21,883 bases of DNA from an uncultured Prevotella sp. (lineage in GTDB: Bacteria > Bacteroidota > Bacteroidia > Bacteroidales > Bacteroidaceae): assembly GCA_900557255.1 (NCBI GenBank), contig USSA01000037.1:1-21883 (forward strand), in the 5' to 3' direction. Both the position numbers and the translations under genes were made by a program. Position 1 is the stretch's first letter. Every line of letters begins with the position of its first letter. The notes beneath the pieces are model-generated. The model was not told where the DNA came from, ran no database searches, and saw only the letters and a list, made by a program, of their open reading frames with translations. Below, piece by piece: positions 2,251-21,883 of this stretch.

Positions 2251-2381
2251 ACTCCTCCCTGAATGTAATCGAGGGAGTGACTCTCGCCAAAAGAGCGAGG
2301 GCCGGAGCAAGGTCAGCTTCGGCAAATTATTAACTTGGATGCAGAGACCACATCCTTGAATACCTCCTAAAAGGAAGGAGG
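2251..2381 (+). repeat. Train of five stem-loops upstream of der
   Basis: Five non-overlapping hairpins tile this stretch: CTCCCT 2255-2260 with AGGGAG 2272-2277; CTCGC 2283-2287 with GCGAG 2295-2299; GCCGGAGC 2301-2308 with GCTTCGGC 2316-2323 (one G-U); GGATG 2337-2341 with CATCC 2351-2355; and CCTCCT 2363-2368 with AGGAGG 2376-2381. The region is richer in GC than its flanks and contains no ORF. The last hairpin buries an AGGAGG element, which would otherwise be a perfect Shine-Dalgarno 13 nt before the der ATG. It could be a structured leader or a dispersed non-coding repeat. The sequence alone does not decide. Confidence 0.6.
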
Positions 2382-6829: not shown

Positions 6830-8188
6830 ATGAAAATTTCATTTGAAAATCCTGACAAGATTAATGGTCTTTTGACCCTCGTTGTCGAAGAGGAAGATTA
6901 CAAGAATGATGTCGAGAAGACATTGAAAGATTATCGTAAGAAGGCTAATGTTCCAGGTTTCCGTCCTGGTCAGGCTCCTATGGGTATGATTAAGCGTCAG
7001 TTCGGTCCATCTGTAAAAATGGAAGCTATCAACAAGCTCGTTGGTCAGCAGATTTACAAGTATGTACAGGACAACAATATCCAGATGCTCGGTGAGCCTC
7101 TCCCATCAGAGAAGCAGGAGCCAGCTGACTTGGAGAAGGGTACTTCTTTTACATTTATGTTTGATATCGCTGTTGCTCCAGAGTTCAAGGTAACTCTTAA
7201 TGGTCGCGACAAGGTTGATTATTATAACATCACAGTTGATGATAAGATTCTCGATCAGCAGATTGATATGTACGCTCAGCGTGCAGGTAGCTATGAGAAG
7301 GCTGAGAAGTACGAGGAGAATGACCTTTTGAAGGGTGACTTGCGTGAGCTTGATGAAAATGGCAATACCAAGGAAGGTGGTATCACTGTAGAGGGTGCTA
7401 TCCTGATGCCTAGCTACATCAAGGTTGACGAGCAGAAGAATCTCTTCAACGATGCTAAGCTCGGTGATGTAATCACATTCAACCCTAAGAAGGCTTATCC
7501 AGAGAACGATACTGAGGTTTCTTCACTCCTGAAGATTGAGCGTGAAGCTGTTAAGGACTTGGAGTCAGAGTTCAGCTTCCAGATTACAGAAATCCAGCGT
7601 TTCAAGAAGCATGAAATCAACGAAGAGCTCTTTAAGCAGGTTCTCGGCGAGGATACTGACGTGAAGGACGAGGCTGCTTTCCGTGCTAAGATTGCAGAGG
7701 GCTTGCAGGCACAGCTCGTTAACGATTCTGATTATAAGTTCATTCTCGACGTTCGCGAGCACTGCGAGAAGAAGGTTGGTGAATTGCAGTTCCCAGATGC
7801 ACTCTTGAAACGTATCATGTTGGCTAACAACAAGGATAAGGGCGAGGAGTTCGTAGAGAAGAACTATGCTGAGAGCATCAAGGAGTTGACATGGCATCTT
7901 ATCAAGGAGCAGCTCATCAAGGCTCAGGACATCAAGGTTGATGACAATGACCTGATGGAGACAGCTAAGGAGGCTGCTCGTGCTCAGTTCGCTCAGTATG
8001 GTATGAACAACATTCCTGAGGAGTACATTGAGAACTATGCTAAGGAAATCCTCAAGAAGGGTGACGCTACAGATGCACTTGTAGATCGCTCTATCGACCG
8101 TAAGTTGGCTGCAGCTCTGAAAACAGCTGTAAAACTCAACGAAAAGGAGATTTCTGTAGAAGATTTCAACAAGATGATGCAGGAATAA
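6830..8188 (+). CDS. tig: Trigger factor
   Basis: A 452-residue ribosome-associated chaperone that meets nascent chains at the exit tunnel. The N-terminal ribosome-binding domain carries the signature GFRPGQAP at 43-50, exactly where GFRxGxxP lies in the family. The middle segment (about 150-255) occupies the place of the FKBP-type prolyl isomerase domain but is strongly diverged, and I cannot recognise FKBP active-site residues in it. Residues about 260-452 are the long helical arms of the C-terminal chaperone domain. Codon use is biased (mostly AAG for Lys, CGT for Arg), as in highly expressed genes. It precedes clpP and clpX, the conserved tig-clpP-clpX order. Confidence 0.94.
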   Translation: MKISFENPDKINGLLTLVVEEEDYKNDVEKTLKDYRKKANVPGFRPGQAPMGMIKRQFGPSVKMEAINKLVGQQIYKYVQDNNIQMLGEPLPSEKQEPADLEKGTSFTFMFDIAVAPEFKVTLNGRDKVDYYNITVDDKILDQQIDMYAQRAGSYEKAEKYEENDLLKGDLRELDENGNTKEGGITVEGAILMPSYIKVDEQKNLFNDAKLGDVITFNPKKAYPENDTEVSSLLKIEREAVKDLESEFSFQITEIQRFKKHEINEELFKQVLGEDTDVKDEAAFRAKIAEGLQAQLVNDSDYKFILDVREHCEKKVGELQFPDALLKRIMLANNKDKGEEFVEKNYAESIKELTWHLIKEQLIKAQDIKVDDNDLMETAKEAARAQFAQYGMNNIPEEYIENYAKEILKKGDATDALVDRSIDRKLAAALKTAVKLNEKEISVEDFNKMMQE

Positions 8189-8322: not shown

Positions 8323-8985
8323 ATGAACGATTTTAGAAAATATGCAACCAAGCATCTTGGTATGAATGGTATGGTGCTTGATGATGTTATTAAGGCACAG
8401 GCTCAGTATATGAACCCTTACATCTTGGAGGAGCGTCAGTTGAACGTTACTCAGATGGATGTATTCTCTCGCTTGATGATGGACCGTATCATCTTCCTGG
8501 GTACACAGATTGATGACTACACCGCAAATACATTGCAGGCGCAATTGCTGTATCTGGATTCTGTAGATAGTGGCAAGGATATTTCTATCTATTTGAATAG
8601 TCCTGGTGGTAGCGTTACTGCTGGTTTGGGTATTTATGATACCATGCAGTTTATCTCTAGCGATGTTGCTACTATCTGTACAGGTATGGCTGCTTCTATG
8701 GCTGCCGTGCTGCTCGTTTCTGGCCAGGAGGGTAAACGCTCTGCTTTGCCTCATAGCCGTGTCATGATTCACCAGCCATTAGGAGGCGTTCAGGGTCAGG
8801 CTTCTGATATTGAGATTGAGGCTCGCGAAATCTTGAAGATGAAAAAGGAATTGTATACTATCATTTCTGACCATTCTCATACTCCTTATGATAAGGTTTA
8901 TGCTGATAGCGACCGTAACTATTGGATGACAGCTGAAGAAGCCAAGGAATATGGAATGATAGATAATGTGTTGGTTCGTAAATAA
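8323..8985 (+). CDS. clpP: ATP-dependent Clp protease proteolytic subunit ClpP (Ser-His-Asn triad)
   Basis: A 220-residue ClpP that should form the barrel-shaped serine protease fed by ClpX. The oxyanion strand SPGG lies at 93-96, the nucleophile Ser125 in GMAASMAA, and His150 in MIHQPLGG. The third triad residue, 49 positions after the His in E. coli and S. aureus ClpP (second D of DTxRD), is Asn199 here (codon AAC, 8917-8919, in DSDRNYW). The preceding Asp197-Arg198 pair used in ring-ring contacts is kept. The N-terminal region before the MNPYILEERQ stretch is about 29 residues, a long propeptide. clpX follows after 65 bp. The product family is certain; peptidase activity is uncertain because of Asn199. 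Confidence 0.94.
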   Translation: MNDFRKYATKHLGMNGMVLDDVIKAQAQYMNPYILEERQLNVTQMDVFSRLMMDRIIFLGTQIDDYTANTLQAQLLYLDSVDSGKDISIYLNSPGGSVTAGLGIYDTMQFISSDVATICTGMAASMAAVLLVSGQEGKRSALPHSRVMIHQPLGGVQGQASDIEIEAREILKMKKELYTIISDHSHTPYDKVYADSDRNYWMTAEEAKEYGMIDNVLVRK

Positions 8986-9050: not shown

Positions 9051-10280
9051 ATGCCAAAGAAAGTATGTAGCTTCTGTGGAAGATCAGAAAATGAAGTCAG
9101 ATTACTCATCACGGGTATCAATGGCTTCATTTGCGAAGATTGTGCTAAGCAGGCTTATGAAATTATACAGTCAACAGGGGTATTGGCTCCTAAAGCTGGG
9201 GAGGGTAAGTTTGTTCTCAAAGAGGTGCCAAAGCCTGTAGAGATCAAAAAATACCTGGATGAATATATCATCGGTCAGGATCAGGCTAAGCGCAATTTGG
9301 CTGTCGCTGTATATAACCACTACAAGCGTTTGCAGCAGCCAAAGGATGAAGATGGTGTAGAAATCGAAAAGAGTAATATCATCATGGTTGGTAGTACCGG
9401 TACAGGTAAAACCTTGTTGGCGCGTACAATAGCTAAGATGTTGGATGTTCCTTTCACCATTGTTGATGCCACTGTATTTACTGAAGCAGGTTATGTGGGT
9501 GAAGACGTTGAAAGCATCTTGTCGCGTCTGTTGCAGGTTGCTGATTATGATGTGGCTGCAGCAGAAAGAGGAATTGTGTTCATTGATGAGATTGATAAGA
9601 TAGCTCGCAAGAGCGATAATCCTTCTATCACGCGTGATGTGAGTGGCGAAGGTGTACAGCAGGGATTGTTGAAACTCTTGGAAGGTACCATGGTTAATGT
9701 TCCGCCTAAGGGTGGACGCAAGCATCCTGATCAGGATTATATCCATGTTGATACCAAGAATATCCTGTTTATCTGTGGTGGTGCTTTTGACGGTATTGAG
9801 CGTAAAATAGCTCAGCGTATGAATACGCACGTAGTAGGCTATAATTCGGTTCAGAATGTAGCTAAGATAGATAAGAAGGATTTGATGCAGTATATCCTTC
9901 CACAGGATTTGAAGTCTTTTGGCTTGATACCTGAAATTATCGGCCGTTTGCCTGTGCTTACTTATCTCAATCCGTTGGATAGGGAGGCTTTGCGCAAAAT
10001 CTTGGTTGAACCTAAGAATTCAATTGTCAAGCAGTATCAGAAATTGTTTGAGATGGATGGCATCAAGTTGAAGTTTGATGAGGAAGCACTCGATTATATC
10101 GTAGATAAGGCGGTAGAGTATAAATTGGGTGCTCGCGGACTTCGTTCAATTGTTGAAGCTGTGATGATGGATGCTATGTTTGAGATTCCATCAGAGAAGG
10201 TTAAATCATTCACTGTTACGCTGGAGTATACCAAGCAACAGTTGGATAAATCTCATCTCGGACAGTTGGAAACAGCATAA
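9051..10280 (+). CDS. clpX: ATP-dependent Clp protease ATP-binding subunit ClpX
   Basis: A 409-residue AAA+ unfoldase. The N-terminal zinc-binding domain has Cys6, Cys9, Cys28 and Cys31. Walker A is GSTGTGKT at 114-121, the GYVG pore loop is at 147-150, Walker B is IVFIDE at 175-180, the RKH loop is at 223-225, and the sensor-2 stretch [10 protein letters not shown] lies near the C-terminus. ClpX recognises tagged substrates, unfolds them and feeds them to ClpP. The ClpP-docking loop, IGF in E. coli, reads VGY at 262-264 (HVVGYNS), a noncanonical version. It sits 65 bp after clpP with no promoter box between them, so clpP-clpX is probably one transcript. Confidence 0.96.
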
Positions 10281-21822: not shown

Positions 21823-21883
21823 GGGCGCTTAGCTCAGCTGGTTTAGAGCATCTGCCTTACAAGCAGAGGGTCGGCGGTTCGAA
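21823..21883 (+). tRNA. tRNA-Val (anticodon UAC), 3' end cut by window
   Basis: The first 61 bases of a tRNA. Acceptor 5' strand GGGCGCT (21823-21829), D-arm GCTC (21832-21835) with GAGC (21846-21849), anticodon stem TCTGC (21851-21855) with GCAGA (21863-21867), loop CTTACAA with anticodon TAC at 21858-21860 (reads GUA, and GUN by wobble), variable loop GGGTC, then the T-arm 5' strand GGCGG and TTCGAA of the T-loop. The T-stem 3' strand, acceptor 3' strand and any CCA lie beyond the window. Confidence 0.95.

What the first reader, a model, noticed from the sequence alone, without database searches (positions are those of the whole stretch)
8911..8922. ClpP appears to carry a Ser-His-Asn catalytic triad
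Seen directly: Ser125 and His150 are in their usual contexts, but the residue 49 positions after His150, which in E. coli and S. aureus ClpP is the catalytic Asp (second D of DTxRD), is Asn199 (AAC at 8917-8919, in DSDRNYW). The flanking Asp197 and Arg198 are kept, so the alignment is not in doubt. Established: Listeria monocytogenes ClpP1 has the same Asp-to-Asn change, is almost inactive on its own and becomes active within a mixed ClpP1/ClpP2 complex. Inference: this ClpP may be poorly active alone, need a partner or activator, or have its resting state tuned by Asn. It is the only clpP in the conserved tig-clpP-clpX locus.
Basis: partly seen in the sequence, partly recalled or inferred. 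Interest (0 to 1): 0.72.

Follow-up and report, generated by a model that had tools for sequence, protein, structure and literature searches.

The report
ClpP protease with relocated acidic residue
This gut-bacterial ClpP protease has an asparagine where the catalytic aspartate normally sits, and such ClpPs, even in distant bacteria, carry an extra glutamate nearby, which suggests that the missing acid is made up for from another place in the protein.

Summary
In detail: ClpP (8323-8985 +) has Ser125, His150 and, at the triad-Asp column, Asn199 (AAC, 8917-8919). It is fixed in the lineage: 96 of 98 same-genus genomes at least 90% complete have it, as do part of a second genus of the family and two further groups of the phylum. 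G001, the nearest genome held, has one full-length ClpP, so a ClpP partner is unlikely.

All 200 distinct Asn-type ClpPs tabulated (many closely related) have a Glu in the handle, at window 166 (188) or 157 (12); 136 of 140 Asp-types have neither. On a ClpX+Tig tree Glu166 and Val156 follow Asn in 7 of 7 supported independent pairs; of 64 columns tested no other exceeds 4.7. ClpP-only trees are too weak to confirm this alone. Listeria ClpP1, the known Asn ClpP, has the same Asn-Glu-Val set.

Best reading: a working, ClpX-activated, homomeric housekeeping ClpP whose acid moved from the triad to the ring-ring interface. Coupling shown; mechanism inferred (0.5).

The parts
8323..8985 (+). clpP, 220 aa ClpP protease subunit
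8917..8919 (+). Asn199 (AAC), at the column of the triad Asp (S. aureus 172)
8818..8820 (+). Glu166 (GAG), second turn of the handle helix (S. aureus 139); the residue coupled to Asn199
   Evidence: helix 160-185 in the model
8788..8790 (+). Val156 (GTT), handle tip (S. aureus 129); second residue coupled to Asn199 within the Bacteroidales set
   Evidence: model confidence is low here (154-157 under pLDDT 50)
8791..8793 (+). Gln157 (CAG); the position that carries Glu instead in the Asn-type ClpPs of family f34
8695..8697 (+). Ser125, nucleophile
   Evidence: invariant in 166 of 166 rows
8770..8772 (+). His150, triad histidine
   Evidence: invariant in 166 of 166 rows
8911..8916 (+). Asp197-Arg198, oligomerisation-sensor pair, retained
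   Evidence: (166 of 166); role from PMC7496096 and PMC9035409 passages
6830..8188 (+). tig, trigger factor, upstream neighbour
   Evidence: Trigger_N
9051..10280 (+). clpX, unfoldase, downstream neighbour and presumed activator
   Evidence: zf-C4_ClpX, AAA_2

Best explanation
Shown: this is an ordinary-fold housekeeping ClpP in the tig-clpP-clpX order whose triad Asp is Asn, fixed across most of the genus, and the Asn is coupled to a Glu in the handle helix (166; or 157 in one family) and, within Bacteroidales, to Val156. Inferred: the triad Asp of ClpP does two jobs, orienting the His and holding the handle/oligomerisation-sensor network in the extended, active state. In Asn-type ClpPs the Asn side chain still accepts the hydrogen bond from His, while the lost negative charge is supplied by Glu166, which lies on the handle helix that forms the ring-ring contact. 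The result would be a homotetradecamer that works without a ClpP partner but has its active/inactive balance reset, so that ClpX docking (or substrate) switches it on.
For: Coupling: N199 has E166 in 66 of 66 and V156 in 66 of 66 unique sequences, D199 has E166 in 1 of 84 and V156 in 5 of 84. Wider set: 200 of 200 distinct N-types have E166 (188) or E157 (12), 136 of 140 D-types have neither (includes 120 near relatives). Against relatedness: on a ClpX+Tig tree (ClpP not used) the state changes 8 times and E166 and V156 go with N in 7 of 7 starred pairs, sign test p 0.0156; of 64 columns tested the next best reaches 4.7. Separate lineages: a clade of f17, f15, f42 and f50 (18 loci, N+E166) with D relatives that have Q/H/T/V166 (32 loci; clade support 100/98); f34, 12 of 12 full ClpPs in 7 genomes N+E157 (support 100/99); ClpP1 of Listeria, Vagococcus and Enterococcus, 108 of 109 distinct N+E139+V129, the other being the D form of PDB 4jcr; second ClpP paralogs, 7 N+E166 and 2 D+Q166 of the 9 read. 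The nearest solved relatives of Listeria ClpP1 (7m1l, 9ndj) have Asp and no Glu there. Close pairs: L039 and L163 differ at 13 compared sites, among them A156V, T166E, D199N; the D-type L127 differs from the N-type L094 by L153M, V156T, E166V, N199D among 19. Function: S. aureus D172N is compact and inactive but ADEP restores it (passages of PMC9035409, PMC7496096, PMC8182300), so Asn allows catalysis once the particle is extended; in Pseudomonas ClpP2 Asp to Ala or Pro leaves 16% or 13% activity (PMC12900304, passages). No ClpP partner.
Against: No activity or oligomer data exist for any Bacteroidota Asn-type ClpP as far as I found. Listeria ClpP1 has the same Glu and is still an inactive heptamer alone, so Glu is not sufficient for independent activity. 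Four D-types carry the Glu too (L116, L282, L283 with E166; L081 with E157). In f34 the Glu sits at a different place. Trees of ClpP itself are poorly resolved: only 2 starred pairs and 3 (the Glu goes the same way in 2.9 of 3). Some switches inside the genus may be exchange of whole alleles: L144, L145 and L149 are nearer to each other in ClpP than their ClpX+Tig places suggest. I had no coordinates, so no distance from Glu166 to His150, Asn199 or Arg198 was measured.
Confidence: 0.5

Rival explanations
1. Latent enzyme reading (first reader, extended): Asn199 makes the particle inactive by default and Glu166/Val156 are part of the off-switch, so the enzyme depends wholly on ClpX or another activator. 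It differs from the best explanation in that the Glu stabilises the inactive state.
For: S. aureus D172N is compact and inactive until ADEP binds; Listeria ClpP1 carries N, E and V and is an inactive heptamer alone, and N172D restores tetradecamers while E139 stays.
Against: There is no second full-length ClpP in G001, so the homomer has to work; reversions to Asp lose the Glu as well, which fits compensation at least as well as an off-switch.
Confidence: 0.22
2. Relocated catalytic acid: Glu166 (or Glu157) itself pairs with His150, in the same or the opposite ring, making a Ser-His-Glu triad.
For: Every N-type tabulated has a carboxylate at one of two handle positions, as a direct substitute would need.
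Against: Two different positions serve; Glu166 lies in the second turn of the handle helix, which I judge (no coordinates) too far from the His of its own subunit; D-types with the Glu exist.
Confidence: 0.1
3. Neutral drift or hitch-hiking: one ancestral allele set (N, E, V) was inherited or passed around by gene transfer and has no functional coupling.
For: ClpP-only trees are weak; allele exchange inside the genus is likely for some D-types.
Against: Whole-gene transfer would carry many columns, but only 166 and 156 follow N in 7 of 7 pairs; the same N+E pair is found in ClpP1 of Bacillota with about 35% identity to the window protein and as N+E157 in f34.
Confidence: 0.1
4. Sequencing error, wrong frame or misalignment.
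For: None.
Against: Same residue in 96 of 98 near-complete same-genus genomes; gap-free placement.
Confidence: 0.01

Closest known systems
Canonical single ClpP (S. aureus, E. coli, B. subtilis; NCBIfam NF011091/PRK14514 and NF001368)
   Same: Fold, Ser and His, oligomerisation sensor Asp-Arg, position beside clpX, sole full-length ClpP in the nearest genome
   Different: Asn at the triad-Asp column, Glu at S. aureus position 139, Val at 129; scores under the TIGR00493 equivalog cut-off (266 against 308.6 bits)
Listeria monocytogenes ClpP1 (PDB 4jcq, 4jcr, 4ryf, 6sfx) and its Vagococcus/Enterococcus relatives
   Same: Asn172, Glu139 and Val129
   Different: 35.5% identity to the window protein over 84% of it; a second paralog beside a canonical ClpP2 in Listeria; [quoted passage not shown]
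Pseudomonas plecoglossicida ClpP1 (Ser-His-Pro)
   Same: ClpP with a changed third triad residue that still has activity (PMC12900304, passages)
   Different: Pro instead of Asn; paralog with truncated N-terminus; acts with a canonical partner
S. aureus ClpP D172N (engineered)
   Same: Same Asp-to-Asn change
   Different: The relatives of S. aureus type read here have Ala, not Glu, at position 139 (Listeria ClpP2, L294; the S. aureus residue itself is recalled); the mutant is compact and inactive until ADEP binds

Membership tests
ClpP (peptidase family S14 by recall; PF00574) | Sequence model match over the cut-off | tested here: met
   PF00574 260.8 bits, cut-off 20.2; NF011091 463.4, cut-off 361
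ClpP (peptidase family S14 by recall; PF00574) | ClpP fold | tested here: met
ClpP (peptidase family S14 by recall; PF00574) | Catalytic Ser and His in context | tested here: met
   Ser125, His150; invariant in 166 of 166 rows
ClpP (peptidase family S14 by recall; PF00574) | Third triad residue Asp | tested here: not met
   Asn199; so it is a ClpP but not a Ser-His-Asp ClpP
ClpP (peptidase family S14 by recall; PF00574) | Two stacked heptameric rings, peptidase activity | not testable with these tools
   Needs purified protein
Listeria ClpP1-type subunit | Asn172 with Glu139 and Val129 | tested here: met
   N199, E166, V156
Listeria ClpP1-type subunit | Second paralog next to a canonical Asp-type ClpP in the same genome | tested here: not met
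   G001 one full ClpP; 150 same-genus genomes, one exception G071. The window's own assembly is not held
Listeria ClpP1-type subunit | Close sequence relation | tested here: not met
   34-37% identity of eight ClpP1 rows to the window protein; best model is NF011091
Listeria ClpP1-type subunit | Heptamer, inactive alone, active with a partner ring | not testable with these tools
   Needs purified protein

The most novel reading that the evidence does not exclude
Ser-His-Asn ClpPs are not decayed enzymes but a recurrent second design of ClpP in which the acid is moved from the triad (172) to the handle at the ring-ring interface (139 or 130), tying catalysis to ring docking. It arose several times in separate lineages, serves as the sole full-length ClpP in Segatella/Prevotella, and explains Listeria ClpP1 as a paralog of the same design.
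Probability: 0.4. Interest if true: 0.75.

Novelty: new variant of a known kind. Interest (0 to 1): 0.62.

Why it matters
ClpP is a textbook serine protease and an antibiotic target, and its catalytic Asp is generally treated as part of the essential triad. A common genus of the human gut and the rumen appears to run on a ClpP without it. The tight Asn-Glu coupling gives a concrete, previously unmentioned (in the papers I could search) handle on how triad geometry and ring assembly depend on each other, and on why the D172N mutant of S. aureus collapses while natural Asn ClpPs persist. It also bears on whether ClpP activators or active-site inhibitors made for Asp-type enzymes act on Prevotella. 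It can be tested with a few point mutants.

Tried and rejected
Sequencing error: rejected by conservation. Another Asp taking the role (Asp195 or Asp197): Asp197 is kept in Asp-types as well (166 of 166), and the alignment with S. aureus is free of gaps here. Hidden second ClpP: not found in G001 nor, but for G071, in 150 same-genus genomes; the list there is cut below 87 bits, and 11 hits of 87-114 bits, most in frames of 356-386 aa, were not studied (they look like head-maturation proteases by length and score only). Extra DRDFWM or DSNYWM pattern hits in same-family genomes are other proteins (L118, L123-L126, L129, L136); two of the eight Asp-pattern hits (L143, L146) are not ClpP, so 6 of 398 same-genus genomes are confirmed Asp-type there. 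The Asn patterns used (YWM or FWM endings) miss the DRNKWM and DRNNWM forms of f17, so undercount Asn-types outside the genus; of the 12 matching genomes, five hits are not ClpP. The scan used NYWMTAEE as one of its words, so its N:D ratio is biased and is not used as a frequency. Coupling of ClpX columns with the Asn: no column stands out clearly (best mutual information 0.32 at ClpX 213). Ranking all column pairs by corrected mutual information did not place any pair with 199 among the first 200; that measure is dominated by deep lineage differences, and I went over to the tree-based test; it is a result against an easy reading by statistics alone. First structure prediction (30 near relatives, pLDDT 41.8) was discarded. 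No listing of my ten paper searches showed a paper on an Asn triad in Prevotella or Bacteroidota ClpP, nor on a Glu139 coupling; the library lacks most subscription papers, among them the original Listeria ClpP1 structure papers, which I know by recall only; I opened five papers, by passages only (PMC5361862, PMC7496096, PMC8182300, PMC9035409, PMC12900304).

Full report
1. The observation. ClpP is the 220-aa ORF 8323-8985 (+) between tig (6830-8188) and clpX (9051-10280). A predicted model (pLDDT 86.2) superposes on S. aureus ClpP with a residue offset of 27 (rmsd 0.8 A for 7xbz_H): Asn199 is position 172, the triad Asp. In the alignments the top five distinct solved ClpP sequences all have Asp there.

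2. It is a lineage trait. Of the 79 of 82 loci that the script could read, 25 have N and 54 D; named N rows include Segatella copri Indica (L003), Prevotella falsenii (L014) and P. illustrans (L044), while Bacteroides, Phocaeicola, Paraprevotella and Alloprevotella rows have D (the scan is biased towards N because one search word held the Asn). By DNA pattern, 96 of 98 same-genus genomes at least 90% complete are N-type. In an even draw of 150 same-genus genomes, 138 had a ClpP that covers the site, and 135 of these match the N pattern. In 398 same-genus genomes, 8 match the D pattern, of which 6 are ClpP. A second genus of the family (g8) is mixed: by my reading of the list, 13 of the 76 genomes with a match are N and 63 D.

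3. It is the only full-length ClpP of the nearest genome. G001 (65% of the window's 31-mers) has one full PF00574 match, and a 30-bit hit in a 597-aa frame. The window's own assembly is not held. Among 150 same-genus genomes only G071 has a second ClpP over 115 bits; it is of Asp type and of another lineage, in an 86%-complete, 5%-contaminated bin (L116).

4. What goes with the Asn. In 150 unique ClpP sequences, N199 is accompanied by Glu166 in 66 of 66 and Val156 in 66 of 66; with D199 these are 1 of 84 and 5 of 84. Leu153 is 66 of 66 against 20 of 84, and Thr99 52 of 66 against 2 of 84. Glu166 lies in the handle helix (160-185 in the model), Val156 at the handle tip, where the model is unsure. 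To test relatedness I built a tree from ClpX and Tig only (163 rows, quick method, LG+G4; several long branches). The 199 state changes 8 times; in 7 starred independent pairs Glu166 and Val156 go with N in all 7 (p 0.0156 each). As a control, 64 ClpP columns were put through the same test: only 166 and 156 reach 7.0; then Thr99 4.7, Phe173 4.6, Lys168 4.5, Val81 4.3, Leu153 3.2. Trees of ClpP itself, with the coupled columns left out, agree but are weak: 9 changes and 2 starred pairs, 11 changes and 3 starred pairs, Glu going the same way in 2.9. Close pairs show the coupled change on otherwise similar proteins: L163 to L039 (13 differences, among them A156V, T166E, D199N), L151 to L018 (12, among them M153L, A156V, T166E, D199N), and the reverse in L094 to L127 (19, among them L153M, V156T, E166V, N199D) and L018 to L193 (16, among them V156M, E166Q, N199D). 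Other D-types in the genus (L144, L145, L149) resemble each other more than their ClpX+Tig places suggest, so some switches may be allele exchange.

5. Other lineages. A pattern search of 394 genomes of the phylum found 12 matching genomes, of which G001 and six genomes of family f34 are ClpP hits. All 12 full-length ClpPs in 7 f34 genomes are N-type, with Gln or Arg at 166 but Glu at 157. In the same class, 18 loci of f17, f15, f42 and f50 are N-type with Glu166; 32 loci of thirteen other families (f4, f11, f13, f19, f28, f30, f36, f38, f41, f43, f44, f51, f53) are D-type with Q, H, T or V at 166 and Q or S at 157. G795 and G826 (f17) have exactly one PF00574 match each. Nine second paralogs were read: seven are N+E166, two D+Q166; in f38, f41 and f44 the main copy is D+Q166 while the second is N+E166. 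Over all loci and the 120 proteins, 341 distinct sequences: 200 N (188 with E166, 12 with E157, none with neither), 140 D (136 with neither, 3 with E166, 1 with E157), one Y (P0043) with E166 (24 of 299 loci held no ClpP frame of score 300 or more and were left out).

6. Listeria ClpP1. Two contigs labelled as Listeria phage hold a ClpP that matches the Listeria ClpP1 entries 4jcq, 4ryf and 6sfx (389 bits for 4jcq). It has N172, E139 and V129, the same set. Of 109 distinct proteins among its 120 best relatives (Listeria, Vagococcus, Enterococcus), 108 have N, E and V; the other is the D form that matches 4jcr, by inference the engineered N172D. The Pseudomonas relatives 7m1l and 9ndj (organism of 7m1l recalled) have Asp and Tyr at these places. 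Listeria ClpP2 has Asp and Ala (L294).

7. How it may work. From passages of reviews and papers: the triad sits beside the handle and the oligomerisation sensor, and correct triad geometry needs the extended form (PMC9035409); S. aureus D172N is compact and inactive, and ADEP restores it; Listeria ClpP1 N172 selects the inactive heptamer and N172D gives tetradecamers (PMC5361862); in Pseudomonas ClpPs the third residue modulates activity but is not strictly required (PMC12900304). From these and the coupling I infer that Asn keeps the hydrogen bond to His and that the Glu in the handle takes over the charge that holds the ring-ring network. The likely partner is Arg198 or residue 168 of the opposite ring. 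Two hints for 168: Lys168 tends to go with N (4.5 of 7), and two D-types that lost Glu166 have Glu at 168 (L193, L147). I recall, without a call, that the neighbour of this residue in E. coli ClpP can be cross-linked between rings. No distance was measured.

8. Standing. Membership in the ClpP family is clear; the Asp of the triad is not met; the partner-dependent life of Listeria ClpP1 is not indicated here. The finding is ordinary as a gene and unusual as an active site: a new variant of a known kind. The coupling rule is the part that would surprise a specialist.

Noticed in passing
L278, L279, L280 (Prevotella phages Lak-B5, Lak-C1, Lak-A1): Lak megaphages, whose host is given as Prevotella, encode their own ClpP (about 56-61% identity) that keeps Asp and Thr166 and has an altered handle tip (SGDHTQ or SGPHTQ). 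An Asp-type phage subunit in an Asn-type host could form mixed particles; not tested.
   Followed up: partly
L282, L283 (uncultured huge phages): Phage ClpPs with Asp199 and Glu166 together, so the Glu can exist without the Asn.
   Followed up: partly
L284 (MT836411.1), L290, L291 (OR846749.1, OR848153.1): Records filed as phage that look like host chromosome: one encodes a ClpP 100% identical to the window's, two encode Listeria ClpP1.
   Followed up: partly
L301-L307: Second ClpP paralogs in several families of the phylum resemble Listeria ClpP1 (HQPxGG, RNFWL) and are Asn+Glu; in f38, f41 and f44 they sit beside an Asp-type main ClpP, as in Listeria.
   Followed up: partly
window 2256-2362: engA cis-regulatory RNA (RF02972, 87 bits) upstream of the GTPase gene at 2395.
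   Followed up: no
window 21823-21883: tRNA match cut off by the window end.
   Followed up: no
P0043: A near relative of the window ClpP with Tyr at the triad-acid position (DSDRYYW) and Glu166 kept; a single protein cluster (20 contigs are listed for P0042, none counted here for activity), possibly an error.
   Followed up: no
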